From NCBI GenBank assembly GCA_946894095.1, contig OX335655.1, positions 12,958,001 through 13,022,000 on the forward strand: 64,000 nt of DNA, in the 5' to 3' direction. Made by a program: the position numbers and the translations under genes. Under the pieces are notes generated by a model. It was not told where the DNA came from. It saw only the letters and a list, made by a program, of their open reading frames with translations, and did no database searches. This stretch comes from Incurvaria masculella (taxonomy: Eukaryota; Arthropoda; Insecta; Lepidoptera; Incurvariidae). Below are positions 41,034 to 61,263 of this stretch, piece by piece. Numbering within the stretch: the first letter of the stretch is position 1; each line of letters starts with the position of its first letter.

Positions 41034-44000
41034 CTACCGACAACGTAACAGGCTCACTACACTATCGAACAAGTTTCCATGCATAAAGTGAATAAAATCG
41101 GTATTAGGTACTGTGCAATAGGAATGCATGTAGCATACTACGGCCGATAAACTGTTTCCATGCTATTAATGATTTACTAGGTTTTTGAAATTTTGGATTC
41201 TAAAATATGTTATAGAAATCTATGTCTGTATGTTTTAATTTCTCTTATATACCTTTTATGTTGGCTAATAAACATTGGAAAAAAGTTGTCAGTTTTTAAG
41301 TTAATTTTCGTTTTTTTTTCCTAAAAATGCAGATATTTACATAAAAATCAAAACATACGGACATAGAATGAAGCTTTCTCAAGTGATGCTACTTTTTTAT
41401 TGAAATCTAGCAACGTTTAGGGGTAGGGAAACGTTAGGGCCCGGAAAACGATTTCCGTGCAAAATTGTGCCTTGGCCAATGGACAAACAATGCATTTCTT
41501 AAAATTAGATTTACATAGATTAAAATCTTAGATTTCTTGTGACTTCACGACAGCCTTAAGAAGATTTGAAAACGAATTTATGGAATAAGAATAGTTTAAA
41601 TTGTTTCCAAATATCTGTTTATGAAAAACAAAAAAACAGAGGCTGTGCTGGGGACTTAAGGTGCTCAGAAAAGCCAAATACACCTCGTCTCGCGAAACCA
41701 CGCTCAACGAGGCACCATACCAGCGGATTTGCGGACTATTGCTGAGCTTTCGAGCTTGTACGATAAAAAATAACCTTCTTAATGAAATTCTTTTCGGCTA
41801 AAAGTGAAAATTTTCTCAAGTCGGAAACAAACATCAAAACGTGAAAAACAGTCGATATTTTTTTTTATATTCATAAAAACAATCTGTTTGATTATATATA
41901 CATATATGTCACACTCTGATCGTATAACTGCAGCTTGTGTAAAAAAAATCTAAACATAAAGCATTTTAAAATAGCGCGTAAAAACTTTAAAATGGAATGG
42001 TCTTATAATCGCGAAACAACCAACCTCCACTCCAGAAAACCCGTCAATCATACAATTTTATTTTGCTTCAGGCAAATTCGCACGAGCTCAAGTGCCGAAC
42101 GCATCCAACGTTACCTGCGGATGTAGGTCATTCCCGCAGGGAAGTCGTAGGTGTCTGCCGCCCTCGCCTCCCCCTCGCGCCCTACTCCCAGCGCCATCTG
42201 CCGCCCCCATGCCGCCAGCCCCCGCTCCTCGTCTGAGCCTGGCCAGCACGACACACCCCAGCCACATCACTACTAGCAGCACTAAGCTACGTACTAGGTA
42301 CGATATGTATACTAGGTCACAGCATTTATGGCTGAATTATATTAAGAAATTATATTATGATTGAATATTTCCTCTAATATCTTTTAGACGCTTTATTTAC
42401 ACAGCTCGAGTGCACACGACCCTACGTTTTTGTTGGTATCTGTTAAGGCTACGCCGTCCACCCGTGGGTAAAAAATATTGCCCCAACACATTGACACAAC
42501 GTGCTCACTCACACAAATGTAAGACATTTACACGGCGCACATTGGATCACGATGCACGGCGGACTTGGACTATGTAAAATATAAAACTTGCGTTAATTAT
42601 GGGACACACAGTATAAAAAAATCTATAACCACAGATCGTTGCGTGCTAGGTACTACTGTACGTACAGGAACTGAGGTATAGGGTGCAGCCTGTAGTAAGC
42701 TCGGCGCCATGCGTCTCGTACTACTACTGTACACTGACCAGGTATGAGGTTGTCGAGCAGGCAGCCGGTGACGCCACCAACCAGAATGGAGGTGGACAGC
42801 AGCACCTGCAGAACGGCGTCGAGCGTCGAGACGCCGGTAGTGAGCTCGGCACCGTGCGTTGCCATCCAGCGCGTCAGCACGAGCGGAAAGAATAGGCTGA
42901 ATCCGACTATGTACAGGTTGCGAGAGCTGTTCAGGTCGATGTACTGTAGTGCTGACAGACCTGTACAATTTCACGTGATTTCAAAAATGTTTTAACGTGT
43001 AACGTGATTGCAGTCGGTTTGTAGTGACCACAGAGCCAAGAATCACCCCACGCACTTTCATAAAGCCGTAGTCCTTTACCAACACTGCATGTAACGAAAA
43101 TGCATCCCAAAATACAACGTTAACTTGCGTAACGGTAACGTTACGTGTATAATGGGACTTATTGCAAAAAAAAAATCAATTTCAATAAACAAAGGCAGGG
43201 AAATGGTACAGTCGAATAAAGAGTTAAGGATACACATCCGGTTGAATGAAAAGATGAACAGTCGAAATACTTTGAATTTTGGAAACAATTATAGGGTAAC
43301 ATGTAGATTCAAACATAGTTGAGGATGTCTACTCAGGAAGAGTAAACAAAACCATAACAAAATTAAATCGAAAGTTGCATATAAACACCATTAATTTTAA
43401 CGTTTAGCCGGAAGTTTATCCTTTAACCTTTGGTTGACTGTACCTACAGTTTTACGTGCATTCCGACACATGAAATTCACTCATCTGACTCAGAAAGAGA
43501 AATAAACAAACGAGGCGGAGGTTCATCCTGCCGAATGAGAATCGAGGCCTCAGTTGTCGTTCATAAATCAAATCGCGGGCGCACCGAATGCCGCGATCAT
43601 GCCGAACATGACGCAGAAGAGGCCGCCGACGATGGGCTGCGGGATGATGATGAACACGGCGCCCAGCTTGCCGAGCACGCCCTGCACCACCATCAACGCC
43701 GCCGCCCACTGCACCACGCGCCGCGACCCCACCTGCGCACACGGTGCAGATATAGCGTGACAAGAGCGGGCGCACCGAATGTTGCTATCATGCCGAACTT
43801 GACGCAGAAGAGGCCGCCGACGATGGGCTGCGGGATGATGATGAACACGGCGCCCAGCTTGCCGAGCACGCCCTGCACCACCATCAACGCCGCCGCCCAC
43901 TGCACCACGCGCCGCGACCCCACCTGCGCACACGGTGCAGATATAGCGTGACAAGAGCGGGCGCACCGAATGTTGCTATAATGCCGAACTTGACGCAGAA

Positions 44001-47000
44001 GAGGCCGCCGACGATGGGCTGCGGGATGATGATGAACACGGCCCCCAGCTTGCCGAGCACGCCCTGCACCACCATCAACGCCGCCGCCCACTGCACCACG
44101 CGCCGCGACCCCACCTGCGCACACGGTGCAGATATAGCGTGAGAAGAGCGGGCGCACCGAATGTTGCTATCATGCCGAACTTGACGCAGAAGAGGCCGCC
44201 GACGATGGGCTGCGGGATGATGATGAACACGGCGCCCAGCTTGCCGAGCACGCCCTGCACCACCATCAGCGCCGCCGCCCACTGCACCACGCGCCGCGAC
44301 CCCACCTGCGCACACGGTGCAGATATAGCGTGACAAGAGCGGGCGCACCGAATGTTGCTATCATGCCGAACTTGACGCAGAAGAGGCCGCCGACGATGGG
44401 CTGCGGGATGATGATGAACACGGCGCCCAGCTTGCCGAGCACGCCCTGCACCACCATCAGCTTCGCCGCCCACTGCACCACGCGCCGCGACCCCACCTGC
44501 GCACACGGTGCAGATATAGCGTGACAAGAGCGGGCGCACCGAATGCTGCTATCATGCCGAACTTGACGCAGAAGAGACCGCAGACGATGGGCTGCGGGAT
44601 GATGATGAACACGGCGCCCAGCTTGCCGAGCACGCCCTGCACCACCATCAGCGCCGCCGCCCACTGCACCACGCGCCGCGACCCTACCTGCGCACACAGT
44701 GTAGATATAGCGTGACAAGAGCGGGCGCACCGAATGCTGCGATCATGCCGAACATGACGCAGAAGAGGCGGACGTGAACATTGTATTATTGCCGCTTCAT
44801 CTCTCTTTCCATCAATGTACCTTCTCAGGCGGGCCATTACCTAGAAGTCGACCTGTGAGGTCTTGTACAGTAGAAAGTGCAGGCTTTCTTTTATGGAACT
44901 GGGCGTGGATGGCTAATCGTACATCTATCGTCACGACATTAGCCCAACACAATAGTAACTAGGCTCTATGCCAGGACCTTCCTTATATTGCACGGCTCCA
45001 TTACACTCGATGAAAACCGCGGAAAATATTCAGTGCCTCTTCGACCCGCTTTCATGAGCGAGATGACCCTACCTCACAGTAAATAAGAAGGGGACCTACA
45101 GTTTTATGTGAAATCTGAACCATTCATCCGCAACGGTCATGAACTCAACAGTACCGCGCCCACGGTAATTGAACCTCGATTATTGAATGCCGATGCATCA
45201 CATGAAGCTACAATGTCATAAGCTTAACCTTGGTGACGCCGATGGCGCCGACGTTCTCCCCGAAGGTGTTGGTGCCATTTCCGGAGCCCCACAGGCCGGC
45301 CAGCATGGTGCCGAGACCCTCCGTGCCCAGCCCGCGGTTGATAGCATGCAGCGGCGGAGGCGGCGCATCTACAACGCACGCTCTTCGATCAGAACTAACA
45401 TACTGCATCCAAAAGGTCATGTGCTTAGTAATTTATGTGATCAATTGCACACTGACTGACTTGCAGCAGATACCTCAACATTCTGGTACCAAAGGTGTAT
45501 TAGCAGCGATTCGTTTTTAAATATTTAGTGGAGATAAATCATCATATATTTAATGAAGATAAATCATCGAATTGAAGAATAAAATAAAGTAACAATCCGG
45601 ACGAGATACCATGACACCTGGCTCAGATAACTTTTAATAAAAGAATTTCGGATATCTCGGAAACAAAAGAATGACTCGGATACATTAAAACGCCACGTAC
45701 ATCGGTAGGAGTGATGCTATCGTTAACTGGGTGACGAGGGCGGGGCTCCGCGCGAAGCAGCAGGAGAAGTATCGAATTCCGAGCCAGGTGTCATGTTAAC
45801 TCGTCCGACCTGAATGCAGAAAGCTGTATTTAGGCCAGCATTTACCTTATGTGGTGGTACCACAGGTGTTCTTAATACATGTATATACAAATTGGGGCTT
45901 CTTTAGAGCTCATTAAATGCTGTGCTTACCACACATCCTGGCAGTGGTGGGGTAGTAGCTGATGGACTCGACGGTGCAGGCCAGCACGCCGGCCAGCATT
46001 CCCAGAACGCCGGCCAGGCTCACCGTCGGCGCGCCCCACTGCCCTGCCGGGGGACACCGGTCACGCACGCACTTTCCGGATAGGCGGGCATGGTACCCTT
46101 AGGACATAGCCCTAAGCAAGAACGTTTTGACGTTCTTTACCCTATCATACTTTCAAAATGTTGGTACCTATCATTGCATATAATCAGCAAACATTGCAAG
46201 AGCTTATAGGTTGACATGACATCCATGGAAATTACGATCGAATTTTTTCGGTTCCGTACCCAAAGGGTGCCAACGGAACCCTATTACTAAGCCTCCGCTG
46301 TCCGTCCGTCCGTCCGTCTGTCACAGGGCTGTATCTCATGAACCGTGATAGGTGGACAGCTGAAATTTTCACAGAGTATATATTTATTTTGCCGCTATAA
46401 CAACAAATATATAACATTATAAAAATCAAAGGAGCGCCCCATCCAAAAAACGTGATTTTGTTGTGCTAAATATTTTAAGATCGTACGGAATCCTTCGTGT
46501 CAACGACGTGTAACTGTCAAAGAGTTACCGGGGTAAGGCACGCGGAACCACGGCGCGTCCTCTATGATGCGCAGCTTGACGTCAGTCCTGGCCGGGTGTC
46601 CAGGCTCCAGGTACTCGGAAAGAGTCAGCGCTAGGCAAATCATCCACATTATGGATATCGTAAGCAGAACCTGAAAGATCGCATAAAAACACATCAACAC
46701 TGAGAAATTATGTGTGAGTTCCACCAATATTATGACGGTAGCCATCCATGTCCAGTCAATTAAAAATATACTGTAATTTGTTTGCACGATTTCAATGTTT
46801 ACGTCTGTAATTCGGTTGATATTTTTCGAGAGATTGTATTGTGTATCTTGCGTCTTTGGTCTAGATCTCAACACCGTGTTGCAGGAATGTTTCTGCCGAA
46901 AAGCATGACCATTTTTTCAAATTCCTTTTTATCTCACTACGGTTATTACGTATGGTGAAATTTTACTGAAGCTCAGTACCCGAAGTCTCAGTTGTCACCT

Positions 47001-50000
47001 AAATTGGCGTTACGGCAAACCGATCGACTGGCGTTTTCAAATGTATGGAGAAATTTAAGAGCGCGCGCAGTGGGCGTTAAGCGAACTAACATTTGCGAGT
47101 CCGAGCTTGATTTGACAGCTTACTCAACGTTGCCGTAAATACTTCGACGTTGCCGTTTACGTCCACTCCGCGTTTTCATACAAATCGGAAGTCCGCGTTT
47201 GACTTTGACAGCTTGAAGAAGTAAAACCACAGAATATCTAGTAAAAACTTGTATGGAGTTTGACGTTTTTATGGAACTTCGAAGTTACGTAAACGCCAAT
47301 TTAGGTGAGAACTGAGACTACCGGCTCAGATTCTCAAAGCTTGTTTACACTGTTCAAGTAATTTAGTTCTATAGGGTTAAAAGTGCTCGCGCAAACATTT
47401 AAGTTGCGTACTGCAGACTACTAAGTGGAGGAAGGGGCATAAGTGACGCTACGTACTGACCGGAAATAGCTTGAAAAGCGGGAACCACGTGAGCTGAAGG
47501 CCGACGCCTTTTCGGTAGGCCGGCATCGGCACGCTGACATCCGCCATACACTGGGAGAATATAGTCAGCAGTATGAAGGTACTGCCGGCACCACACAACA
47601 TTAATTATGAATATATAAGTTGTAGAACAAATTCCCTAAAAACGGCGGTTAGTGGCCGTTTAGGTCGAATAGTGCGATTTGGTCACCAAGCGGCTCGGAC
47701 GCCCCACGCAGCTAAGTCACGCCTCTAGATTCCGAACGAATCCACGTCTACTCAATCCAGGCGGTTAGGTTAACATACTTATCTTGCCAGGTCCAAAATA
47801 AGTTCAAAATGTTTTTTCTTGATACAAATTCCACTTTCATTTGGACGTGCTAGGCTAAAGTAGACCACCAGGTCCGGTATATTGAGAGGCCACTTTTCTT
47901 TCACATATAATATAAATAGTTAATTGACTCAAGAATACCATAGCCCTATTAAGTCCCCATAACAAAAAAAAAATCGCACTCTTTTTTGGGGCAAAACAGA
48001 GAATACATTTCTGGTTTAACATGGAAAATAATAACACAGAGCCTGGAATTGCTCAGTCAATTCTACCTTAATTCAGCCTAAATTATTTCCGGGACCCGAC
48101 AGCGGCGGCCGTGGCAGTTTCGGCGTTGGTAAAGTCGGCGAAGGTGGCGTGGTATACTTGCCCAGCGGCGATGCCCCAGTGCTGCGAGGCGGCGGCGGCC
48201 GCGTGGTCGAACAGCGTGATGCCGACCAGCGCCACCGTCGGCACGATGGTGAGCGGCGTCACCAGGCGCAGCAGCGCGCCGAATATACCGAAGTAGCCTG
48301 CGCACACCAGAAGCCTAACGTAAAATATATATACTGGAAAACATGCCCTGTTCCAAATACTTCTGTTGGCGACGGCCAAGCTAAAAAGTGCTACGTTAAC
48401 TGAAATTCATGTACCTATGTTTGTATATTTCTGCATGTCTGTAAATGTGTGTATTGTATATAGAATCATTATGAAAATAAACGAGATTTCCGGGTTGTGT
48501 TTTCGTTGTCGAGGCAGTTAAGTACAGAGCCGGCCGCGCTAGCCTATCACAAGCCAGATAGGGACCGCACCCAGCGCTGTGAGCGGGGGCGCGACGAAAT
48601 AATTAGAGCGAGATAGGTAGCCCGGCCGGCGGCCCGCGGTGCTGGCGCAGCGCGACGTGTGAGCGCGCCGCGCGAGAACAAAAGAGCGCCGCCGCGGGCC
48701 AAACAGTCAGTCGCCATTCAGCCTCGGCACGGAGCACACCTCGAGATAAACAAGATACAAGCCTTGTTCTCACTGCGATCTGCCGCCTCCCCGACCTACT
48801 CTGGAAGCTCTGCTCGTCGTCCTGCCTGCCAGCCTTACAACCTGGTAGCGCCAACGAGCCTCGCCCAGCTCTGTCGCAAGCCCACCGCCGCCGCACCGTC
48901 GTCGCCTGCATCGGCTTGGAAGAGTCTGGGGGAGCTGTCCACGAGCCCTGTCCGGAGGCGCAGTCGCCACCGTTGCCGCCGCGACGACACTGCCGCGACA
49001 CACGCCGCCGCACCGTCGTCGCTCGCACCGGCTCTGAAGAGCCCGGTAGTGCTGACCCTGGCCCCGCCGACGAGATCGGCCGAACGCCCGCCGCCGCAGT
49101 GACGTCACGCCGACGTCGCCGCACCGGCCTGAGACCTGCCCTCTGGTCGCCCCGCACCTCCCGCCGCTACACCGCCTCCTGCGCCGCAACAGGCGCCCGA
49201 CGAGCGGAAGCGGGAGGTAGTCCTGGCCTTTGTTGTCATTTTTCAGAGAAACGGAACCCGGCAACACAGAGAGACGACACCCGTCGCTAACATTGGTCCT
49301 TCGAGCCGGATCTGAAGATGTCAGCGACCAGGACCGCGCGGAACCAGACCACGAGGGCAGAAGAGCCTGCTTCTCCATGCACCACCGGAAGCGCCCCCTG
49401 CGTCCCGCTGCTGCACGATGACGAGTTGGAGAGGGCCAAAATGCTACTAGCCACCTTGGAAGCGGCCAGCAAATCCTTTGAGGACGCCATGTCCTTAGAG
49501 CGACCAGCCGCCTCTATCGCCCGCGGCCGCGCCTGGCTGGCGCGAGCCGCTTTGCAAGTTATAGAAGAGGTCGCAAGACTAGAGCGCCGCCGTGTCGACG
49601 AAGAAAGGAAACGTGACGAGGAGGAAGCGAAGCAGGCCAAGCTGTTGGCTGATGAAGAAATGGAGCAGGTCAAAAAACTGGTTTACCAGCGACTAGCCGA
49701 AAAGCGAGCAGCTATCATGGCCGACTACGCGGCAGACTGTGCGCGGCACAGAGAAAAGGCACGCGCCGACGCCTGGTCACCCCCGCTGCTTACCGGGGGG
49801 AGTGCCGGAGTGCCGCCGGTTGCCACGACTCTTATCGGGTCGTCGAGTGGACTCAAACACGTTGCGACCGCGTGCCGCACCTCCGCGCCTGCCGCTGCAG
49901 GGCCGCCGGCTGCCACGAGCCTCGTCGTGTCACCGACGAGTGGGCTCATCTCCGCTGCGACCACGTGTCGCACCGCCGCGCCGGCCGCGCCTGCTGCTGC

Positions 50001-53000
50001 AGGGCCGCCGGCTGCCACGAGCCTCGTCGTGTCACCGACGAGTGGGCTCATCTCCGCTGCGACCACGTGTCGCACCGCCGCGCCGGCCGCGCCTGCCGCT
50101 GCAGGGCCGCCGGCTGCCACGAGCCTCGTCGTGTCACCGACGAGTGGGCTCATCTCCGCTGCGACCACGTGTCGCACCGCCGCGCCGGCCGCGCCTGCCG
50201 CTGCAGGGCCGCCGGCTGCCACGAGCCTCATCCTGTCGCCGACGAGTGTGCTCCTCCACGCTGCGACTGAGTGTCGCACCGCCGCGCCGGCCGCGCCTGC
50301 CGCTGCAGGGCCGCCGGCTGCCACGAGCCTCGTCGGAGCAACGACGAGTCGGCTCATCTCCGCTGCGACCACGTGTCGCACCGCCGCTCCGGCCACGCCT
50401 GTTGCTGCAGGGCCGCCGGCCGCCACGTGCCTCGTCGGAGCAACGACGAGTGGGCTCATCTGTACTGCGACCGCGGGTCGCACCGCCGCGCCGGCCGCGC
50501 CTGCTGCTGCAGGGCCGCCGGCTGCCACGAGCCTCGTCGGAGCGACGACGAGTGGGCTCATCTCCGCTGCGTCTGAGTATCGCACCGCCGCGCCGGCCGC
50601 GCCTGCTGCTGCGGGGCCGCCGGCTGCCACGAGCCTCATCCTGTCGCCGACGAGTGTGCTCCTCCACGCTGCGACTGAGTGTCGCACCGCCGCGCCGGCC
50701 GCGCCTGCCGCTGCAGGGCCGCCGGCTGCCACGAGCCTCGTCGGAGCAACGACGAGTCGGCTCATCTCCGCTGCGACCACGTGTCGCACCGCCGCTCCGG
50801 CCACGCCTGTTGCTGCAGGGCCGCCGGCCGCCACGTGCCTCGTCGGAGCAACGACGAGTGGGCTCATCTGTACTGCGACCGCGGGTCGCACCGCCGCGCC
50901 GGCCGCGCCTGCTGCTGCAGGGCCGCCGGCTGCCACGAGCCTCATCGGAGCAACGACGAGTGGGCTCAAACACGTTGCGACTGAGTGTCGCACCGCCGCT
51001 CCGACCGCGTGTCGCACCCCCGCGCCGGCCGCGCCTGCTCCTGCAGAGCCGCCGGCTGCCACGAGCCTCATCGTGTCGCCGACGAGTGTGCTCCTCCACG
51101 CTGCGACTGAGTGTCGCACCGCCGCGCCGGCCGCGCCTGCCGCTGCAGGGCCGCCGGCTGCCACGAGCCTCTTCGGAGCAACGACGAGTGGGCTCATCTG
51201 TACTGCGACCGCGGGTCGCACCGCCGCGCCGGCCGCGCCTGCTGCTGCAGGGCCGCCGGTAGCCACGAGCCTCGTCGGAGCAACGACGACTGTGCTCGTC
51301 GGGCCTACGAATGTGCCTCAACTCGCTCCGCCGCCCGCGCCTGCTAGCCGCCGGCGGAGGGGCCGGGTAAAGAATAAGACGAAAGCCGCTGCCTCACCGA
51401 AGAGGAATACCTCGTCACCAGAGAAGAGGCTCGCCAAGTCCGTGACTGCGCGGCGCACCGCGCCTGCCACGGCGCATGCGCCGTCCCGACGGTTCACCGT
51501 CCCGCCTGTTGCGCCAGTCAGACGCCGCCCGCCGCGCCATAACCAGCGTACGCGTCGACCAATGGAGTCGCCGCGCCATAAGGAGCTTGCGAGGGACGAG
51601 ACCAACAGAGGCGCAGAGGAATACCCACAAGGCATTAAGAATCCGCCCAGCCAGCCGACGAAACACCTGGGACGCAGCCGCTAGCAATGCAGACTCAAGA
51701 ACACAGGAAGAAACGCAGAAGGAACGGCAACGCAGCACGGACCGTCGCCCCAAAAGGGTGTACACGCCAGTCGTGTACAGGGGGGAGAATGTTGGCGACG
51801 GCCAAGCTAAAAAGTGCTACGTTAACTGAAATTCATGTACCTATGTTTGTATATTTCTGCATGTCTGTAAATGTGTGTATTGTATATAGAATCATTATGA
51901 AAATAAACGAGATTTCCGGGTTGTGTTTTCGTTGTCGAGGCAGTTAAGTACAGAGCCGGCCGCGCTAGCCTATCACAAGCCAGATAGGGACCGCACCCAG
52001 CGCTGTGAGCGGGGGCGCGACGAAATAATTAGAGCGAGATAGGTAGCCCGGCCGGCGGCCCGCGGTGCTGGCGCAGCGCGACGTGTGAGCGCGCCGCGCG
52101 AGAACAAAAGAGCGCCGCCGCGGGCCAAACAGTCAGTCGCCATTCAGCCTCGGCACGGAGCACACCTCGAGATAAACAAGATACAAGCCTTGTTCTCACT
52201 GCGATCTGCCGCCTCCCCGACCTACTCTGGAAGCTCTGCTCGTCGTCCTGCCTGCCAGCCTTACAACCTGGTAGCGCCAACGAGCCTCGCCCAGCTCTGT
52301 CGCAAGCCCACCGCCGCCGCACCGTCGTCGCCTGCATCGGCTTGGAAGAGTCTGGGGGAGCTGTCCACGAGCCCTGTCCGGAGGCGCAGTCGCCACCGTT
52401 GCCGCCGCGACGACACTGCCGCGACACACGCCGCCGCACCGTCGTCGCTCGCACCGGCTCTGAAGAGCCCGGTAGTGCTGACCCTGGCCCCGCCGACGAG
52501 ATCGGCCGAACGCCCGCCGCCGCAGTGACGTCACGCCGACGTCGCCGCACCGGCCTGAGACCTGCCCTCTGGTCGCCCCGCACCTCCCGCCGCTACACCG
52601 CCTCCTGCGCCGCAACAGGCGCCCGACGAGCGGAAGCGGGAGGTAGTCCTGGCCTTTGTTGTCATTTTTCAGAGAAACGGAACCCGGCAACACAGAGAGA
52701 CGACACCCGTCGCTAACAACTTCGAGCGTCTTCTTCTTGACACTTCTTACTTCTTCATCAACACTTTAATATATTTCAATAACATAAATCAATTTGAGAT
52801 GACCCTTTATGGAATAGTAGGCAGGAGTGGACTAACCGAGAAAGAGCTGGAAGAGTGCGGAGACGGCGATCGCTCCTGACAGTTCGCACATTCGCGTCAT
52901 CCAGACGACCCGCCGCTGCTCGTCCGTCATGGCGGCCAGCAGCGCGCCGTCCAGGCAGCGCCACTCGGGAAGGTTCAGGATCGCCAGCGTGGGCACCAGG

Positions 53001-56000
53001 AACGAGATCGTCCCGCCCTGAACGATCGGCAGCCGGCACCCGAATGTTGACTGCAGCCACGTGATTAGACCTGAGGAGTGTGACGAGGGTCATGATTAGT
53101 AAAATTTGGTTTACAGCGGGATCGCTGGCTGCGTTGGATACACGGAGATCGACGTGGTTGGAAAGATCAAAACCTACGATCAAATCACTGATCGATTCGA
53201 GATGTGCACGCGATGACTAAAACCCAAATTGAAAATCCTGAGAATATTCAGGGCTGAATATTCGTATCTGATAGGGAAGATTGACGGTCTCGATGATGCG
53301 TCCTGTATTATCGACGAACAGATTATGGGCCGAGTGCACGAAAGGACAAATCATCAAAATCAACATCAACATATATTTAAACATGTCACTTTGTATGGAC
53401 AGTACGGAAGGAACTCCATGCGGTTCACTAGAAGTGACGTGTTTGAGCATTGATTAACTCAGCCGTCTCTTCGTGCAATCGGGGCCTAGTTAATCCGTTG
53501 TTCGTTTACTATATTCTGGGAGGCCACGTCATTTTTGGGAATGATAACGTAAATGGCTGAAACTGGGTTCACAGGTTAGGGACCGACCCCCCGATGCGAA
53601 ATATGCCGGTCTGCCTGCCTCAAGTGGTTGCGTCACAGAATAACTAATAGTGCTACGCACAGAAGTTGCACTCCCCGACAGTAATTTTTCAATTTTCATC
53701 CTAAATGTCCTTATTATAAAGTATTTATTACGTCGCTCATTGCCGGCGCGGCGGCGAGATGAAACGCGTCGTCGCTCACCCGCCCCATATCGCTGGAATG
53801 CGGCTTGCGCTAGGGTTATCACACACGGCCGCCGCCAAACAGTATTGTTTGGTATTGTCCGGGTTATTGTTGTTATTGGCCGGGTTGATAATATCACATT
53901 TGATAAAAAGTTGGTCGAAACGGTAATAAAACATTGTCCGTGTTTTCCATTCAGTTCAATATCGCCGTGCTCAGGAAAGGAAGGTCCTGGTATGGCAAAA
54001 ACCGGCCAAGTGCGAGTCGGGCTCGCACAAGAAGGGTTCCGTACCATCGTACAAGATCAAACATTTTTTTTTTTTGTAGGAGGCATATTAAAACTTAAAC
54101 TTAAACTTTTATTATTTTTTTAATTTTACCTATTTGTTGTTCTAGCGGCAAAATAATTACACACTCTGTGAAAATTTCAGCTGCCTACCTATTACGGTTC
54201 CTGAGATACGGACGGACAGCGGAGACTTAGTAATAGGGTTCAGTTTTCACCCTTTGGGTACGGAACCCTAAAAATGAACTACATGCAGCAAAGCAGAATA
54301 GGCAATAAGTACCTGGGGCTGCCACGAATGATTGCCCATTATTGTTTCACTAGGCGAAACCAATGTATGTTGTTTTTCCTTGTAATACATGGATAAATAC
54401 TACCTAATGTATAAAAAAGTGCTGTGCTGATACCAGTTAAATTCGTGTCAATTCAATAGGCCCCTCATAACACTTTACCACATACCTACCTACATAAAGG
54501 CAAAACGTCCATAAACCTAAACTAAAAAAACAAACTCCCCTTTCAGAATATTTCGGAAGCGTAAAGAAAGTTAACTTCAAATTCTTTCGTGTACTATGAC
54601 ATCCGTTCACGCAACAATTATTATATTTAGTTCTATGATGATTAGACATTATTACGAATAAAAACGGCGAAAGTGCGCTTTTCGAAACGACTGATCGACT
54701 GGACGTAGTGGACGTGCGAGCGTGTGCGCGCGGCGGCCCTGACTGAATTTGGAACCTCGAGTTCCCGAGCGCCGTAGGTGAAGATCTCAGTAGGTATTTA
54801 GGAGTGACGGATGCCTAGTTGCGTTAGCTAGATATGGCGCCTGAAAAAGTCGTTATCATGACCAGAAAAAAATCATAACGTAAATGGCTGAAAACAGTAT
54901 GGAGCGCAAGTACTAGTTGTACTTATGTGAATTACGCAAAAACTGAACAAAAATTTGGTTGCGTTATGGAGCAAGCCCATTCAAAGATGCTTTATCGTGA
55001 CCGAAAAAAAATCATAATGTAAATGGCTGAAACCAGTATGGAATGCAACTACTAGTTGTACTCATGTGAATTACGCAAAAACTGAACAAATCTCTGGTTG
55101 CGTTTCCTAGCAATATGCGAATGAAGTTACAGATATCACTTAAATTACATTCAAGTTTTTAATAAAATCATACCTACTGGTTATTTTTGCATGATTAATA
55201 GGTATGAATATTTCCAAACAAACATTTTATTCATCATTAGGTACATACCAACATAATTTAAGCATCTGTTTTAAAAGTTAAAGTCCTAAACTAAAGCTAG
55301 ACTAGAGCCAAACACATTTAATTATACATTTAAAATGTATTAATAATGTCACCACGGGGACATAATTTTTCGGAGATATTTAACATTTACATAGTGCGAA
55401 ATCCCAAAATGTCAGAGTTAGGCAGGCGGGGATGCGAGGAGCGTTTGTTTTGGTCCGCGCTCGAGCAAACTCTGTGCGTCGCTTCCAGTAGATAAAACAC
55501 ATACAATGCGATTCAAATAAGAATAGGACAGAGCTCGTGACTAACTTCACTCGAACTAGCTCGGAAAAGTACGATAGGCATGTCCAGACGCTTCAATATC
55601 AAAGGAAGCCTGACGCTTTTTTTCATGCATCAGAACCGAGGTGTGATCCGAGTATATGCGTGTACATGCGTTTTCGTTTTTTTATTGTGTAGCGTTTTTG
55701 CCTGGCCGTGACAGCGACACTAGACAAAACACAAATCACGCAGTATAGGATGACATTAAGTGCCATTCACACAATATGCAGTTGCATGAGAAGGGGGGCT
55801 GTACTTTGCATTTTCGGTTAAGTCCGCCTTTGTGCAGTTTCGCTCTGTTAGATTTAATTGTTCTGTAAATAGTTTTTAATGTAATTTGCACAATAAAGAA
55901 TTTCTTTCTTTCTTTCTTTCTTAAGTTGCCGTTAAACTTAACATATATTTTCCCAAAAGTTCTTAGGCATTTACTGGTCCGATCTTGATTGATTATAACA

Positions 56001-59000
56001 CTTTTAAAATAGAAATGGTGAGAGGATTTCTTTTAATTAACAGTACTCATATTGCACTTCGATTGACATATAATATTTCTACACGAGAGAAGATAAAAGT
56101 AGTAACTTTAAACCAACAAACACTTCAGAAAGTCACCTTAGTCTCGAACGTATAAGGTATTTTTTTAAATTTAATTGTCGACCAAGGTAAAGGAGGTAGA
56201 AATATGTTGGTTTAGATGTTCACTGTTGTTCGACATATTATTTTACGTTTACGAAAATAGTGTTCAGCTTACGCGTCGAGCTAACGTTTCGTCCACCACG
56301 CAGTGGACATCATTAGGATTCGCGACGCGACCTGGAGGACCTCTGACGCTTCGTCCAGTCAGATTTAAACTGCAGGTCGTCGGCTGCCAGATTGTAGCTG
56401 TGGCTTGGTTCAGCCGCAGATGAGGGTAGTGACGAAGAATTCCGTTCGGCAATGAAGTCATCTGTGCGAACTATGCTAACGGTGTCACTTTGCCTCAATG
56501 TTGGCAGCTAAACTCTTGTGTTGCCATATTTCGCCAGTAACGGAGACCAACACGCTGATAGCTTCCAACTATCGTCTCTGTTAAAGTTGGAATGCCTTGT
56601 AATTTCTATCGATTCTCAAACTAAGCGTGGTATGTATTGTTTTTCTATATTTATCGTTTCAGCTTGGTCGAAGCGAATCCAATGGTTATTTCTATTATTG
56701 AAGGCATGCTCACAGATCGCCGACTTGTGGAACTTATTGTTTTTAAGAGGCTTGATGTGTTCTCCTGTTATGGTTTGAACGCTCCGTTTTGTCTGGCCAA
56801 TGTAACTTTTTTCACAGCTGCTTGGTACTTTGTAGACTCCTGGGCCCTGTAGTGGGTTTCTGTCTTTCACTGAACTAAGCATGGAAGAGATTGTTGTGAG
56901 AGGTTTGAAAAACATTTTTTTATTCCAATTTTGCTATAGAACCTTCCTATGCGATCAGTTATCCCTCGCACGTATGGGAGTTATGCGCACTGTCTTCGAC
57001 CCTGAGTCCTCAGCCATACCTTGGCACGATTCTTGTAGTCATGTAGATGATGTCCACAGCGTGGTGGCTGAACGAGACGCTATTACCACCGACACCGAAA
57101 CCTCAGTTGGGACCATAACCCCAGTAGGTCTTGCCGCCTCAGCATATCGCTTCTGTACTCGGTGAGTGCACGTGAGATGTCCACTTCTTATTTTCCTGAT
57201 AGGTACCGGAGCTATAATGCATGCTCACCGGCTGAAACCGAAGCCTAACGTTTCAATCCATGCTCGCGACGACCATGGATTGAAACGTTAAACGTTAAAC
57301 GTTGTTTCTTTGGGACATTCAAAAATAATGCATCCCACCATTCCATGACCTAGAATCAAGGCAAGTTAATTAGGGCAACTCGCCTGCATATAGGTCATGA
57401 GCATAAGGAAGGTCCTGGCATGGTAACTAGTTCCCATGTAGTGTTTTAGGCTAATATCGGACGGTCAGTTTGGTATTAGCCATCCAATGTAAAGTTAAGT
57501 ACGTAATAAAAAACTGAGGTCGCTCTCTACGCTCGGAGTAGGCAGCCCGAACATGACGTGCTTGCCGGACAACAGCAGCAGAGCAGTTACCCACTCCTGC
57601 TGGTAACTACAAAGCCACGGGTCAAATGTCGAAGCCGATGGTGGGCGCACTCCCTACGCCTATGACAGCCTAGTCCACAAGCCCGAACCGATACATTTCA
57701 AATTAAAGGGGCCCTGGGGGAATTTATGTTCCAAATACCGGAATGAAGTTCGCGGTGTAACTTCTTAGGCTGTATGTGGCAAGCTGCACTCACGTCAGGG
57801 AAACGTGGAGAAGGTCTCACGCCGTCAAGCGTTACCCGTGTTTAGACGTGGTGCATCGCGGATTTCGTTATCATTTTGTATCAAGCATCTAAAGGTTAGG
57901 CGCCTGGAGAAACTGCCTGTTTGTTGTATATTAGGGCTGTCCCTGCACCGGTATAAGTAAGAACGTATACGAAATTTCGCAAAGGACCTTCAAAGCATTG
58001 CAGCGGAGATTTTCCGGGTTTTTTTTGGGCTGCCGCTCTGGTTCCTCCTCGAACCTCAACATTGCAATTATTTTACCAATATCCCAGTGTTCTAATGTCA
58101 CACCAAAGATAATATTTTATTCACCTTTATTTCATTTTACAAAGTCACAGGAGAAACAACAGCAACGAAATATACAATGCGATTCGAATAAGAATAGGAC
58201 AGGGACCACCGCCATTTTAAATGTCAAACTGCGAAAGCCAATTAATTTCAGCATGGCGTGCAAAAAAGTTTCTGCAAAAAATATCGAATTAACATTTAGA
58301 AAAAATAATTAGTTTTAAATAAATATTATTTGAAGAACAGAGATTAAAAAAATATTCAACAACGCTATAATAAACAAAATTAACCAATAAAACAACTAAA
58401 CTAAGGCAATTTCGAGGACATCTGACACAAACTAAGCACATGTAACTATGTAATATACATAAAACAGATAACCGAAAATGCAAAGTACAGCCCCCCTACT
58501 CATGTAACTGCATATTCTGTAAATGGCAATCAATGTCATCCTACACTGCGTAGATTTGTGTTTTGTCTAGTGTCGCTGTCACGGCAGAAAGGCTACACAA
58601 TAAAAAAAAGGAAAAAGCATGTACACGCACATACTCGGATCACACCTCGATTCTGATGCATGAGTGCCGACCGTACTTTTCCAAACTAATTCAAGTGAAG
58701 TTAGTCACTAGCCCTGTCCTATTCTTATTTGAATCGCATTGTATGTGTTTTATCTACTGGAGGCGACGCGCAGAGTTTACTCGAGCGCGGACCAAAACAA
58801 ACGCTCCTCGCATCCCCGCCTGCCTAACTCTGACATTTTGGGATTCGCACTATATATATGTTAAATATCTCCAAAAAATAATGTCCCCGTGGTGACATTA
58901 TTAATACATTTTAAATGTATAATTAATTGTGTTTGGCTCTAGTCTAGCTTTAGTCTAGTATTTTAACTTTTAAAACAGATGCTAAAATGATGTTGGTATG

Positions 59001-61263
59001 TACCTAATGATGAATAAAATGTTTGTTTGGAAATATTCATACCTATTAATCATGCAAAAATAACCAGTAGGTATGATTTTATTAAAAACTTGAATGCAAT
59101 GAAAGTGATATCTGTAACTTCATTCGCATATTGCTAGGAAATGCAACCAAAGATTTGTTCAGTTTTTGCTTAATTCACATGAGTAAAACTAGTAGTTGCA
59201 TTCCATACTGGTTTCAGCCATTTAGATTATGATTTTTTTTCGGTCATGATAAAGCATCTTTAAATGGGCATTGCTCCATAACGCAACCAAATTTTTGTTC
59301 AGTTTTTGCGTAATTCACATGAGTACAACTAGTATTTGCGCTCCATACTGTTTTCAGCCATTTACGTTATGATTTTTTTTTGGTCATGATAACGAGTTTT
59401 TCAGGCGCAATATCTAGCTAACGCAACCACTTGAGGCAGGCAGACCGGCATATTTGGCATCGGGGGGTCGTTCCCTAACCTGTGAACCTAGTTTCAGCCA
59501 TTTACCTTATCATTCCCTAAAATGTCGTGACCTCCTAGACTACTAGTAAAGTACTAGTAAACGTCATGACAAACCTGTGACGAAGATCATGGTGGAGATG
59601 ATGTTGCTGCGGTCGGGGTCCTCGTCCGCCATGCACAGCGCCGGGCACAGAATGAACGGGATCGCTACGATAGCGCCGATCATTGTCAGGTAGTGCTGCA
59701 AAACAATACAGTAGACGAAGTGATACGCTGAGGTTGAAATCCAGGTTCTATGACGATACAGTCCTATTGCATTGATTCTATATACTCGTCAGAGGCTTTG
59801 GCTATAATTTCGGGTGTAAGAAAAGTTCAATATGTGTATGAAAGTTTTTTATGCAAACTGATCACAAAGCGTTATTGGTTCTTTTCTAATTATTGGGAAA
59901 TGTACAATCACGGCAATTTATTCATTAACTCAGTGATTTCTAAGAGTGATTCCACATATTTTTACATAATAATGCATTTACCGTCGTTGTCAAAAATTGG
60001 CTTCATACGATAGAAGATTGTCTCAAGTATTTAATATTTATTGATTTGGTTTGCTTGCTGGTTCGAGACCAGCCTTGCTCAATACATATTTAGTTACATT
60101 TGCATTGTTTAAATATGATGAGTTTGTTTGGACACAAGTTAATAATAATTTTGATCCAGATTGGTCACAAACTTAGTCAAACTGACACGACAATGTGCTC
60201 GTAAGCGAATGTCATGTTTAAACTTGGATTTATAGCCTTCTATTGATATAAACTATTGTTGTTAAACCTACTTGTAAACTGGTGCTAATCCCTACAATAA
60301 ACTTATGCAAGTGTAAATGAACGACAGCCCGAGGTTGTGAGGACAAGAGTTGGCGTGGAGAAGACACGATTGTGTTAATTGAAACAGGTATCTTATCTTG
60401 AACCATTGTGGAATTCCGTTTTTGATGCGATCTCGGCTGTTTATTTAGAGCTCTTCTGGGTAGAACTAGCCGCTTGTCAAGTTTATTTGAGGCACATCAT
60501 AAAATTTTGTCTCAATATTCGAATATCGAAAAAAACTGTGGTTTGGTTGCGCGGATATAGTCGACCGCTATCTTTCTCTGAGTCTGACCTGATCTGCCTG
60601 GGAACATGGCGCCCTGGGACATTGAGGCAGTTGGATTCAATTAGTTTTCCCAGGATTGGAACGATATCGAACCTGCAATGCCATGAATATGCAGAGGTAC
60701 CAAGGTGGGGTGTCGTCGATGCCGTAGGTGATATCCGAGCGGCGCTCCCTTGCATTCTCCTGCTTCCCTGGTACCGAATCAGCTGATGAATCCTCTTCGT
60801 TCTGGAAATAAATTCCTTTCTGTGGATTTCTGTGAATTTTGGTTTTTTTTCCCGACCGAAGCACATGCCACAGCAATTTATTTCTATATCATCTACAGCC
60901 AAAGGACCATGGTATCTGGGGTAATTAAGCCTACAATGTTATATACCATATTTCCTTGGTAAGGGATCTGGTATCTAAACTAGGTCTTTCTATTTTCCTA
61001 ATCTCCTAAGTCTCTAAATCTCCTAATCTCCTACGTAGCGAGTTCGTCGTAGTGTCAGCTGAAAGAAGACATAGTAAAGAAAATAACAACGTTGTCTTGG
61101 GGCGGTTTGCAAATGTGTAGCGAATGAGTGACGAAAGAAGGACGAAATAGATTTACAGAGCAGAAATGAATGGAATCGTGTCGTGCCCGGGTTACCTAGG
61201 AGAACTTACCACGGCCAGATTGACGAAGCAATCCGTAATGTAGCACCCATCATCGTAGACCAT
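40916..61263 (-). CDS. SLC23-family nucleobase-ascorbate transporter, 13 exons, 600 aa
   Basis: Exons from 5' to 3': 61210-61263, 60673-60801, 59575-59695, 52837-53070, 48162-48297, 47461-47581, 46529-46670, 45930-46043, 45229-45368, 43585-43732 (one of six alternative copies), 42739-42960, 42115-42238, 40916-41033. They total 1803 bases with matching phases at every junction. The product is a multi-pass plasma-membrane carrier; family members move ascorbate or nucleobases, mostly driven by sodium or protons. Landmarks: YGIDDTPPWYLCIFMALQ before the first helix, PIVQGGTISFLVP, SQHWGIAAG, FSQCMADVSVPMPAYRKG, GNGTNTFGENVGAIGVTK (holding the NAT signature ENVGAIGVTK at about residues 388-397), YDFPAGMTYIRR and SFLPFMPTYQPGK. 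The length is normal for the family. The introns are filled with transposons. The substrate cannot be read from sequence. The first exon is the least certain. Confidence 0.93.
42115..42238 (-). CDS. SLC23 exon 12
   Basis: Acceptor GCTGGCCAG, donor CGCAG|GTAACG. Encodes DEERGLAAWGR to YDFPAGMTYIRR, the family's cytoplasmic C-terminal stretch. Phases 1 in, 2 out. Confidence 0.88.
42739..42960 (-). CDS. SLC23 exon 11
   Basis: Begins with GLSALQYIDLNSSRNLYIVG and contains FSLFFPLVLTRWM and the last helix region to DNLIPG. Acceptor TTGTACAG, donor CCTG|GTCAGT. Phase 1 on both sides. Confidence 0.92.
43585..43732 (-). CDS. SLC23 exon 10, canonical copy
   Basis: VGSRRVVQWAAALMVVQG followed by the helix ending FCVMFGMIAAF. 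It starts at phase 0 right after the NAT signature exon and ends at phase 1, giving FGMIAAFGLSALQYID across the next junction. It is the last of the tandem copies in transcript order. It has Met in FCVMFGMI, the residue I expect for the family, where the other five full copies have Lys. Confidence 0.88.
43585..44768 (-). repeat. 191-bp tandem array of SLC23 exon 10: six full copies plus one partial
   Basis: The unit is a 148-bp exon plus a 43-bp spacer. Full exon copies are at 43585-43732, 43776-43923, 43967-44114, 44158-44305, 44349-44496 and 44540-44687. A 38-base partial copy at 44731-44768 abuts SINE sequence. Every full copy keeps the acceptor TGCGCAG (one reads GCACACAG just upstream) and the donor TTCG|GTGCGC. 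Protein differences are few: Met/Lys in FCV(M/K)FG, AAF/ATF, one Ala-to-Lys (44349 copy), one Gly-to-Cys (44540 copy) and one Met-to-Ile (43967 copy). Confidence 0.93.
44775..45165 (-). mobile_element. SINE fragments next to the exon array
   Basis: 44775-44850 is body sequence (TTGCCGCTTCATCTC). 44890-45165 is tail and body (TGGATGGCTAATCG, ATGCCAGGACCTTCC). Insertion here truncates the outermost exon copy. Confidence 0.6.
45229..45368 (-). CDS. SLC23 exon 9, NAT signature
   Basis: DAPPPPLHAINRGLGTEGLG, then the loop GLWGSGNGTNTFGENV and GAIGVTK. Holds the signature of the nucleobase-ascorbate transporter family. Acceptor GCGTTGTAG, donor CCAAG|GTTAAG, phases 1 and 0. Confidence 0.93.
45930..46043 (-). 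CDS. SLC23 exon 8
   Basis: GQWGAPTVSLAGVLGMLAGV to ESISYYPTTARMC. Acceptor CCCCGGCAG, donor GTG|GTAAGC, phase 1 on both sides. Confidence 0.93.
46249..46503 (+). mobile_element. GTCY MITE in SLC23 intron 7
   Basis: GGTTCCGTACCCAAAGGGTG start, short (GTCC)n, CAGGGCTGTATCTCATGAAC. Confidence 0.8.
46529..46670 (-). CDS. SLC23 exon 7
   Basis: VLLTISIMWMICLALTLSEY to IIEDAPWFRVPYP. Acceptor GATCTTTCAG, donor CCCCG|GTAACT, phases 0 and 1. A SINE tail fragment lies at 46725-46770 in the preceding intron. Confidence 0.93.
46984..47321. mobile_element. 340-bp MITE in SLC23 intron 6
   Basis: AGTCTCAGTTGTCACCTAAA start and TTTAGGTGAGAACTGAGACT end. Closely similar to 16961-17300. Confidence 0.8.
47461..47581 (-). 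CDS. SLC23 exon 6
   Basis: TFILLTIFSQCMADVSVPMP, AYRKGVGLQLTWFPLFKLFP. Acceptor GTGCCGGCAG; donor TTTCCG|GTCAGT; phases 2 and 0. Confidence 0.93.
48162..48297 (-). CDS. SLC23 exon 5, followed by a GC-AG intron
   Basis: GYFGIFGALLRLVTPLTIVP to SQHWGIAAG. The acceptor is GTGTGCGCAG. The reading frame into exon 6 (GG|T ACC TTC) requires the donor GG|GCAAGT, a consensus-like GC donor. The nearby GTATAC site two bases further would break the frame. Confidence 0.9.
48364..49292 (+). repeat. 5' LTR, 929 bp
   Basis: Starts TGTTGGCGACGG and ends CCGTCGCTAACA (imperfect inverted termini). The first ~170 bp are AT-rich with AATAAA near 48475; the rest is GC-rich leader. An initiator-like TCAGTC lies near 48707. 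I see no difference from the 3' LTR, so insertion is very recent. The 147-codon frame at 48659-49102 exists in both LTRs and has no recognised domain. Confidence 0.92.
49318..51684 (+). CDS. 788-aa tandem-repeat protein of the LTR element
   Basis: Begins 26 bases after the 5' LTR. Residues 1-34 are polar. About 35-150 is a charged, probably coiled-coil region (LERRRVDEERKRDEEEAKQA). About 165-660 consists of 34-residue repeats encoded by a 102-bp unit: landmarks AAPAAPAAAGPPAATSL, then a variable V(V/G)(S/A)(P/T)TSGL and a conserved CRT. Repeat landmarks fall at 49911 and every 102 bases to 50931, then 51057, 51159 and 51261 (one 24-base insertion). The C-terminal 130 residues are Arg/Lys-rich (SRRRRGRVKNKTKA). 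It occupies the gag position but has no zinc knuckle or recognisable capsid domain. Possibly a gag replacement that binds RNA through its basic tail. GC content is far above the flanks. Confidence 0.75.
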   Translation: MSATRTARNQTTRAEEPASPCTTGSAPCVPLLHDDELERAKMLLATLEAASKSFEDAMSLERPAASIARGRAWLARAALQVIEEVARLERRRVDEERKRDEEEAKQAKLLADEEMEQVKKLVYQRLAEKRAAIMADYAADCARHREKARADAWSPPLLTGGSAGVPPVATTLIGSSSGLKHVATACRTSAPAAAGPPAATSLVVSPTSGLISAATTCRTAAPAAPAAAGPPAATSLVVSPTSGLISAATTCRTAAPAAPAAAGPPAATSLVVSPTSGLISAATTCRTAAPAAPAAAGPPAATSLILSPTSVLLHAATECRTAAPAAPAAAGPPAATSLVGATTSRLISAATTCRTAAPATPVAAGPPAATCLVGATTSGLICTATAGRTAAPAAPAAAGPPAATSLVGATTSGLISAASEYRTAAPAAPAAAGPPAATSLILSPTSVLLHAATECRTAAPAAPAAAGPPAATSLVGATTSRLISAATTCRTAAPATPVAAGPPAATCLVGATTSGLICTATAGRTAAPAAPAAAGPPAATSLIGATTSGLKHVATECRTAAPTACRTPAPAAPAPAEPPAATSLIVSPTSVLLHAATECRTAAPAAPAAAGPPAATSLFGATTSGLICTATAGRTAAPAAPAAAGPPVATSLVGATTTVLVGPTNVPQLAPPPAPASRRRRGRVKNKTKAAASPKRNTSSPEKRLAKSVTARRTAPATAHAPSRRFTVPPVAPVRRRPPRHNQRTRRPMESPRHKELARDETNRGAEEYPQGIKNPPSQPTKHLGRSR
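49890..51290 (+). repeat. 102-bp coding minisatellite, about 14 units
   Basis: Exact 102-base spacing over eleven units, then one of 126. A higher-order block of four units (408 bp) starting near 50217 is repeated from near 50625 with almost no changes. Confidence 0.92.
51790..52718 (+). repeat. 3' LTR, 929 bp
   Basis: Same sequence as 48364-49292 as far as I can compare by eye. Followed directly by ACTTC. Confidence 0.92.
52837..53070 (-). CDS. SLC23 exon 4
   Basis: GLITWLQSTFGCRLPIVQGG to CELSGAIAVSALFQLFLG. Contains the conserved PIVQGGTISFLVPTLAIL stretch. Acceptor CACTCCTCAG, donor CTCG|GTTAGT, phase 1 on both sides. Confidence 0.93.
53334..53489 (+). mobile_element. GCACGAA MITE, copy 5
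   Basis: GGGCCGAGTGCACGAAAGG start; CTTCGTGCAATCGGGGCC end. In SLC23 intron 3. Confidence 0.75.
53870..53997 (+). mobile_element. SINE body fragment
   Basis: GTGTTTTCCATTCAGTTCAA and GGTCCTGGTATGGC, cut by the following GTCY MITE. Confidence 0.55.
53996..54276 (-). mobile_element. GTCY MITE, inside foldback left arm
   Basis: ACCGGCCAAGTGCGAGTCGG start; CACCCTTTGGGTACGGAACC end. It has almost no GGAC repeat left. Confidence 0.75.
54545..54649 (-). pseudogene. THAP-type zinc-finger N-terminal fragment
   Basis: From an ATG at 54649 the frame reads MSNHH..., CCVNGCHSTRKN and LTFFTLPK. A Cys pair near the N-terminus followed by an FF-x-LP motif is the start of a THAP domain, found in P-element-type transposases and host DNA-binding proteins. 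The later Trp, Cys and His of the domain are absent, and after about residue 35 the frame loses similarity. Confidence 0.4.
55903..55922 (+). repeat. (TTTC)n microsatellite
   Basis: Short (TTTC)n run after CAATAAAGAATTTC, a typical tail of a Lepidoptera interspersed repeat. Confidence 0.6.
56175..56915 (-). pseudogene. Penelope-like element GIY-YIG endonuclease and 3' end
   Basis: The minus frame 56915-56616 has GVYKVPSSCEKSYIGQTKRS, a GIY-YIG-type nuclease core with Cys changes, then KSAICEHAFNNRNNHWIRF and INIEKQYIPRLV, all typical of the C-terminal endonuclease of Penelope-like retroelements. After a stop and frameshift the frame goes on with FNRDDSWKLSACWSPLLAKY. Near 56300 the minus strand has CTAATGA, a GTCCAC/GTGGAC stem and GAAACG, a decayed hammerhead-like core. 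The RT itself is not recognised. 56990-57240 may be more of the element. Confidence 0.7.
57246..57290. repeat. Perfect hairpin, 17-bp stem, 11-nt loop
   Basis: TAACGTTTCAATCCATG and its exact complement around an 11-base loop, followed by AACGTTA repeats. Confidence 0.7.
57398..57500 (+). mobile_element. SINE tail fragment
   Basis: GGAAGGTCCTGGCATGG and GGTATTAGCCATCCAATG. 57500-58470 is otherwise unrecognised apart from a short duplicate of arm sequence at 58170-58200. Confidence 0.6.
59575..59695 (-). CDS. SLC23 exon 3
   Basis: HYLTMIGAIVAIPFILCPAL to SNIISTMIFVT. First transmembrane helix region. Acceptor TTGTTTTGCAG, donor ACAG|GTTTGT; phases 0 and 1. Strong family match. Confidence 0.94.
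60673..60801 (-). CDS. SLC23 exon 2
   Basis: NEEDSSADSVPGKQENARER then RSDITYGIDDTPPWYLCIFM and ALQ. Acceptor TTTATTTCCAG, donor TTGCAG|GTTCGA, phase 0 on both sides. The frame is also open upstream to an ATG at 60876, so an unspliced alternative start is possible. Confidence 0.88.
61210..61263 (-). CDS. SLC23 exon 1, likely start
   Basis: ATG at 61263 after an in-frame TGA, 18 codons (MVYDDGCYITDCFVNLAV), then the strong donor GTG|GTAAGTT. Phase 0 fits exon 2. N-termini of this family are poorly conserved, so support is from structure only. Confidence 0.55.

What the first reader, a model, noticed from the sequence alone, without database searches (positions are those of the whole stretch)
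48359..52723. LTR retrotransposon that carries only a repeat-protein gene
The element is complete in cis: identical 929-bp LTRs, 5-bp target duplication, primer site and polypurine tract. Its single long frame (788 codons) replaces all of gag-pol. Most non-autonomous LTR elements (LARDs, TRIMs) are non-coding or keep broken gag; an intact unfamiliar repeat protein on a just-inserted copy suggests it is transcribed and perhaps selected. It may be a new family that borrows RT and integrase from a BEL/Pao element.
Basis: partly seen in the sequence, partly recalled or inferred. Interest (0 to 1): 0.85.

Follow-up and report, generated by a model that had tools for sequence, protein, structure and literature searches.

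The report
Gag-derived hitchhiker of a retrotransposon
This is a young jumping element that lacks copying and inserting enzymes but keeps one long gene, made from the front of a helper element's gag gene plus a repeat array; the likely helper is in the same genome, and the two appear to have exchanged parts.

Summary
In detail: identical 929-bp LTRs, 5-bp TSD, PBS, PPT, 788-codon frame. The genome search turns it into a family: six two-LTR copies with TSDs and a long frame (686-1092 codons) from the same ATG. Two young BEL/Pao elements with intact 1948-codon gag-pol frames (L035, L036) are the likely helper. The frame is not an unrelated protein: its first ~236 aa align with the helper's gag up to where the capsid domain (DUF1759) begins, and in 3 of 6 copies a 27-aa stretch near the end matches the end of pol. 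No capsid or enzyme domain is found. Satellite and helper differ in U3 (62% identical) and gag N-terminus (60% of bases) but are 98.8% identical in R-U5, as expected if reverse transcription swaps R-U5 between co-packaged RNAs. The N-terminal coiled-coil part shows a synonymous excess (dN/dS 0.24-0.39); the basic C-terminal part shows none among young copies. The window copy is a recombinant with a 557-bp frameshifting deletion. Best reading: a satellite LTR retrotransposon moved in trans that encodes a capsid-less Gag remnant. New variant of a known kind.

The parts
48359..48363 (.). target site duplication ACTTC (left)
48364..49292 (+). 5' LTR, 929 bp. U3 seems to end near nt 115-135 of the LTR, where identity to the helper jumps from 62% to 98.8% (border inferred from this alone)
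49293..49312 (+). primer binding site (TTGGTCCTTCGAGCCGGATC), identical in the helper L035
   Evidence: the primer tRNA was not tested
49318..49803 (+). N-terminal 162 codons: gag-derived; an 89-residue helix (aa 64-152) is predicted; synonymous excess
49804..51348 (+). linker and Ala/Pro-rich array of 34-residue (102-bp) units, 515 residues
51349..51613 (+). basic C-terminal region up to the deletion junction (about 51614-51618)
51614..51684 (+). off-frame tail after a 557-bp deletion relative to L031-L034
49318..51684 (+). whole frame, 788 codons, no Pfam match up to E 1
51777..51789 (+). polypurine tract ACAGGGGGGAGAA
51790..52718 (+). 3' LTR, identical to the 5' LTR
52719..52723 (.). target site duplication ACTTC (right)

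Best explanation
A young non-autonomous (satellite) LTR retrotransposon that depends on a BEL/Pao element. Shown: two candidate helper copies with intact gag-pol in the same genome; nearly identical R-U5, identical PBS and PPT; independent insertions with 5-bp TSDs; R-U5 alike between satellite and helper while U3 and the coding part are not. Inferred: its RNA is packaged into particles made by the helper's Gag-Pol, primed by the same tRNA, copied by the helper's RT with occasional intermolecular minus-strong-stop transfer (which keeps R-U5 matched to the helper), and inserted by the helper's integrase. Its own frame is a gag-pol remnant: the gag N-terminal coiled-coil and linker, an expanded repeat array, a basic region of unknown origin and, in 3 of 6 copies, the last codons of pol. 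Most likely function, inferred: the coiled-coil part still makes contact with helper Gag or with itself and favours packaging of its own RNA, which would explain why only that part shows a clear synonymous excess.
For: Helper: gag-pol frames of 1948 codons in L035 and L036, 1937 of 1948 residues identical; LTRs 1/950 mismatched in L035, TSD ATTAC; L036 flanked by CTGCT on both sides; domains DUF1759, Peptidase_A17 (Pao) and DUF5641 above Pfam's cut-off, aspartyl protease, RVT_1, Integrase_H2C2 and rve below it (searched in pieces). Gag origin: aa 1-236 of the frame align to gag 1-240, 36%, E 5e-27; aa 1059-1085 of L033's 1092 align to the last 27 of gag-pol, 74%, E 4e-7. Mosaic, window vs helper, identical of aligned: U3 71/114, R-U5 804/814, leader 64/73, N-terminus 248/417. 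Control: the old relative L049 does differ in R-U5 (623/767 to the window, 642/787 to the helper). The C6 copy (L037) has a third U3 (16/100 mismatches to the window, 11 gap columns) with R-U5 11/798 mismatched, so homogenisation seems to recur. Family: six copies with TSDs, LTR pairs 0, 0, 0, 2, 1 and 1 mismatches. Selection: window vs L034, 29 synonymous changes in 118 sites against 24 nonsynonymous in 347, p=1.1e-6; L031 vs L034, 8/119 against 8/346, p=0.037.
Against: The C-terminal region shows no purifying selection among young copies (6 synonymous, 27 nonsynonymous segregating changes; p=0.42). Over 173 codons aligned between L033 and L049 dN/dS is 0.57 with mismatches 75, 61, 77 at the three codon positions, and in the best-aligned 46 codons 12, 10, 10: weak or no protein-level constraint. 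The array is open in other frames too. The full copies are young, so open frames alone say little. Selection on the N-terminus rests on three sequence types in one genome, with a simple counting method; part of the divergence could have arisen in helper lineages no longer present. In the N-terminus the satellites are nearer to the helper (dS 0.95-1.07) than to the repeat-bearing L049 (dS 1.2-1.6), which leaves room for an N-terminal swap with a helper lineage. No transcription, protein or transposition data. The RT search of the genome did not complete, so other possible helpers are uncounted.
Confidence: 0.8

Rival explanations
1. The frame is passenger sequence: a decayed gag-pol that stays open because it is young, GC-rich and grows in 102-bp steps. 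The RNA signals alone matter, and the protein does nothing.
For: Neutral C-terminal region among young copies; array open in several frames; N-terminal length alone reached by 10 of 300 shuffles; the window copy inserted with, or later acquired, a frameshift in the C-terminal part, and L032 and L034 carry an earlier TAG there; LTR pairs with 0-2 mismatches leave little time to break.
Against: Significant synonymous excess in the N-terminus over a divergence (dS 0.25-0.30) far above that of the LTR pairs; 0 stops in 6 of 6 N-termini, with 2-6 stops in each of the other two + frames; the old relative L049 keeps a 581-codon stop-free frame of the same architecture.
Confidence: 0.35
2. The N-terminus was selected while still part of autonomous gag-pol genes, and different versions were brought in later by recombination; the satellite itself never needed it.
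For: Clear shuffling: the window has L033's N-terminus (0/486) but L031's 3' end (0/172). The satellites' N-termini are nearer to the helper (dS 0.95-1.07) than to the repeat-bearing L049 (1.2-1.6; 89-96 codons). RT template switching among family members is established in Arabidopsis Onsen (PMC5668417, passages read).
Against: Only 8 N-termini were found in the genome (15 candidates, all scored), and the 2 autonomous ones are far from both satellite types, so no donor for either type is seen; all six satellites of both types carry the array.
Confidence: 0.3
3. An ordinary recent internal-deletion derivative of one gag-pol copy.
For: Ends and flanking codons match the helper.
Against: The N-terminus differs from the helper at 40% of aligned bases; by blastn the internal region matches the helper only in three short pieces; there are several copies and an old relative.
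Confidence: 0.03

Closest known systems
TR-GAG elements of plants (e.g. AT5TE33540 in PMC8704663; passages read)
   Same: Non-autonomous LTR element with two LTRs and one gag-related frame, similar to a potentially autonomous element of the same genome.
   Different: TR-GAGs encode a GAG protein. Here the capsid domain is missing, and a repeat array and a basic region take its place.
Autonomous/non-autonomous partnership by LTR swapping in soybean (Du et al. 2010, seen only as a title in a reference list; not held)
   Same: Going by the title: partners share LTR parts through recombination.
   Different: Here an animal BEL/Pao helper; the shared block coincides with R-U5; the satellite keeps a coding part with signs of selection.
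Onsen/Copia78 recombinants (PMC5668417, passages read)
   Same: Hybrid LTRs, most of them consistent with the first DNA template switch; U3 and R/U5 can come from different parents.
   Different: There within one family in an induced burst; here between a satellite and its helper.
Non-autonomous plant pararetroviruses with concerted evolution of noncoding sequences (PMC5491270, passages read)
   Same: Regulatory sequence homogenised by recombination with a partner.
   Different: Viruses of plants; not LTR retrotransposons (recalled).
LARD and TRIM elements (TRIMs in PMC10886601, passages read; LARD recalled)
   Same: LTRs, PBS and PPT without enzymes.
   Different: Those are short or non-coding; this one has a conserved gag-derived frame.

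Membership tests
LTR retrotransposon | Two LTRs, TSD, PBS, PPT | tested here: met
BEL/Pao superfamily | Pao-type pol (Peptidase_A17, RT, RH, IN) | tested here: not met
   Absent from the element; present in the helper. The element is therefore called a satellite of a BEL/Pao element, not a member.
BEL/Pao superfamily | Sequence homology of LTR, leader and gag N-terminus to a Pao-type element | tested here: met
TR-GAG | Single frame encoding GAG with its domain | tested here: not met
   No Pfam match in the frame; alignment ends where DUF1759 starts in the helper (aa 240 vs 243)
TR-GAG | Related autonomous partner in the genome | tested here: met
LARD | Large non-coding internal region (recalled) | tested here: not met
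   Open frame in 6 of 6 copies with the N-terminal part
TRIM | Very short element (recalled) | tested here: not met
   4355 bp
Trans-mobilised satellite | Movement depends on the helper's proteins | not testable with these tools
   Needs a transposition assay

The most novel reading that the evidence does not exclude
A retrotransposon satellite that carries its own selected, capsid-less partial Gag: a coiled-coil adaptor with an expandable Ala/Pro-rich arm and a basic tail. It would insert into the helper's particles and favour its own RNA, while its promoter region (U3) stays its own and R-U5 is kept matched to the helper by strand transfer.
Probability: 0.3. Interest if true: 0.75.

Novelty: new variant of a known kind. 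Interest (0 to 1): 0.55.

Why it matters
A likely helper-satellite pair of LTR retrotransposons lies in one animal genome, both young, with a sequence record that fits RNA co-packaging (R-U5 shared, U3 and coding parts not). It makes testable whether a satellite can profit from keeping a piece of Gag without capsid, and how non-autonomous elements avoid drifting out of step with their helper.

Tried and rejected
Unfamiliar domestic or captured protein: rejected, since the N-terminus is gag-like and the C-terminal region has matches only in this family in the genome, apart from two weak ones on C26 and C5 (14 matches from 28 candidates, all scored). Array derived from the gag linker: only partly supported; linker plus first units beat 1000 of 1000 shuffles, but the unit alone was reached or exceeded by 102 of 1000 and the L049 stretch by 37 of 1000. 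C-terminal region derived from pol: not shown; 66 bp at 74% (E 2e-4) and the last 59 bp at 85% match the helper by blastn, and the rest has no convincing match. Protein searches of the frame's aa 1-165 (5300 candidates; lengths bound by the 788-aa query) and of L033 aa 740-1092 (7982 best candidates scored) found nothing at E 0.001; as a check that insects are in that database, the helper's gag found one butterfly protein (Maniola jurtina; 7990 best candidates scored), which matches the helper's capsid and zinc-knuckle part, not the window's N-terminus. One weak PDB match (laccase, E 0.17) was ignored. Genome searches for RT, for the array and for a tRNA that fits the PBS did not complete; that the PBS fits a tyrosine tRNA is recalled, not tested. 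Literature: the papers listed (20 of 57; 15 of 34; 15 of 73; 7 of 7; 10 of 378; 12 of 25) show by title and abstract no animal BEL/Pao satellite with such a frame; these are open-licence papers only, and I read passages of five (PMC8704663, PMC3442997, PMC5668417, PMC5491270, PMC10886601). On re-checking, the distances (satellites nearer to the helper than to L049) were added; for that reason the second rival went from 0.25 to 0.3 and the novel case from 0.35 to 0.3.
Full report
Observation. The element is complete in cis as described: 929-bp LTRs without a mismatch, TSD ACTTC, PBS, PPT and a 788-codon ATG frame. The stop-free run (796 codons) exceeds every one of 300 dinucleotide shuffles of the internal region (largest 549), but the N-terminal 162 codons alone were reached by 10 of 300, and the 102-bp array is also stop-free in another + frame and on the - strand.

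Family. The LTR has 47 matches in the window's own genome (552 Mb, 31 contigs; 40 of 66 candidates scored, so a lower bound). Six non-autonomous copies have two LTRs, 5-bp TSDs (ACTTC, CTCGC, CCTAT, ATTGT, GGTTC, GGTAT) and a long frame from the same ATG: window 788, L031 976, L032 686, L033 1092, L034 1008, L038 1002 codons. The full C-terminal end is kept in L031, L033 and L038; L032 and L034 have an earlier TAG, and the window is frameshifted. LTR pairs differ at 0, 0, 0, 2, 1 and 1 positions, indels aside (L033 17 bp; L038's 5' LTR is 268 bp longer). A seventh two-LTR place on C6 (L037) lacks the N-terminus, and one on C14 (L039) is mostly deleted; the TSDs of these two were not examined. 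Of 8 places examined as solo LTRs, 7 have a TSD. An older, 5'-truncated relative (L049) has the same order of parts, a 581-codon stop-free frame and an LTR about 81% alike.

Helper. L035 and L036 share the LTR and hold gag-pol frames of 1948 codons with 1937 identical residues; both are flanked by 5-bp duplications (ATTAC, CTGCT). Searched in pieces, L035 matches DUF1759, Peptidase_A17 and DUF5641 above Pfam's cut-off and Asp_protease_2, RVT_1, Integrase_H2C2 and rve below it, which marks a BEL/Pao element.

Origin of the frame. aa 1-236 align with gag 1-240 (36%, E 5e-27), and gag's DUF1759 begins at 243. In L033 residues 1059-1085 of 1092 align with the last 27 of gag-pol (74%, E 4e-7). The N-terminal 162 residues are predicted to hold helices at 32-57 and 64-152 (mean pLDDT 79.9, over 90 in most of the second; 4 sequences), as for a coiled coil. 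The array is 45% Ala+Pro and nearly uncharged; the C-terminal region is basic (24-29% Lys+Arg). That the repeat unit comes from the gag linker is suggested, not shown. The source of the basic region is unknown.

Mosaic LTR. Window against helper, identical of aligned bases: U3 71 of 114, R-U5 804 of 814, PBS and leader 64 of 73, N-terminal coding part 248 of 417 (in the 12-LTR alignment 71 of 109 and 809 of 819). The block of high identity ends near the U5/PBS border, which is the span of minus-strong-stop DNA. The old L049 differs by about 19% in the same block, so it is not frozen by constraint. The C6 copy has a third kind of U3 with the same R-U5. I infer repeated intermolecular strong-stop transfer in shared particles; in new Onsen insertions most LTR recombinants fitted the first template switch (PMC5668417, passages). 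The U3/R border itself is inferred from the break in identity.

Shuffling within the family. The window copy is identical to L033 in the N-terminal part (486 bp) and the first 264 bp of the C-terminal part, and identical to L031 in the 172 bp before the 3' LTR, with LTRs 2 and 7 mismatches from L031 and L033. The array between was not compared. The change of partner falls at a 557-bp deletion (window about 51614-51618) that shifts the frame. The simplest account is a template switch; recombination plus a separate deletion is not excluded. The window frame ends in about 22 off-frame residues and lacks about 255 residues of L033's C-terminal region (about 186 deleted, the rest off-frame).

Selection. 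N-terminus, window against L034: dS 0.30, dN 0.07, mismatches at codon positions 9, 15, 29, p=1.1e-6; window against L031 p=4e-5; L031 against L034 p=0.037. dN/dS is 0.24-0.39 in the pairs that differ by more than one change; these comparisons are not independent. Against the helper it is about 0.42-0.47, against L049 0.41-0.56 (from one search's values). C-terminus: 6 synonymous and 27 nonsynonymous segregating changes among L031, L033, L034 and L038 (L032 equals L034 there and was left out; the window was left out because of its frameshift), p=0.42; between L033 and L049 dN/dS is 0.57 over 173 codons, without a clear third-position excess (75, 61, 77). So protein-level selection is supported for the gag-like part only. 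Whether it acted within the satellite is open: the satellites' N-termini are nearer to the helper (dS 0.95-1.07) than to the repeat-bearing L049 (1.2-1.6), so a past N-terminal swap with a helper lineage is possible.

Verdict. A satellite LTR retrotransposon of a BEL/Pao element with a capsid-less Gag remnant, very probably moved by the L035/L036 helper. The kind (non-autonomous element plus helper, LTR recombination, gag-only elements) is known, in what I read from plants; this make-up of the coding part was not seen among the papers listed. The host is probably a butterfly or moth: the helper gag's only database match is a butterfly protein and the genome has 31 contigs; it is not named.

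Noticed in passing
window 48083-48379 (-) and 48364: The element lies on the opposite strand, 49 bp from what looks like the splice acceptor (at 48315) of a Xan_ur_permease exon, so it may disturb splicing of that gene (the permease match there is slightly below Pfam's cut-off).
   Followed up: partly
window 43575-44829: Six tandem copies at 191-bp spacing, 97-98% alike except the last (81%); - strand frames across them repeat a permease-like exon piece, of which one was scanned (Xan_ur_permease).
   Followed up: partly
window 24265-25050 (-): Mariner-like transposase frame of 261 codons (Transposase_1, HTH_48).
   Followed up: no
window 54818-55580 and 58665-59427: Inverted arms in three adjoining pieces, 94-97% complementary, around about 3.1 kb: possibly a DNA element.
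   Followed up: no
L036 7313-8218 (-): The helper copy's 5' LTR lacks 44 bp that its 3' LTR has, just downstream of the inferred U3/R border.
   Followed up: no
L037 780-1678 (-): A third U3 type with the common R-U5; its element lacks the N-terminal part.
   Followed up: partly
L049 2070-3815: Old relative with the same architecture and a 581-codon stop-free frame but strongly diverged repeats.
   Followed up: partly
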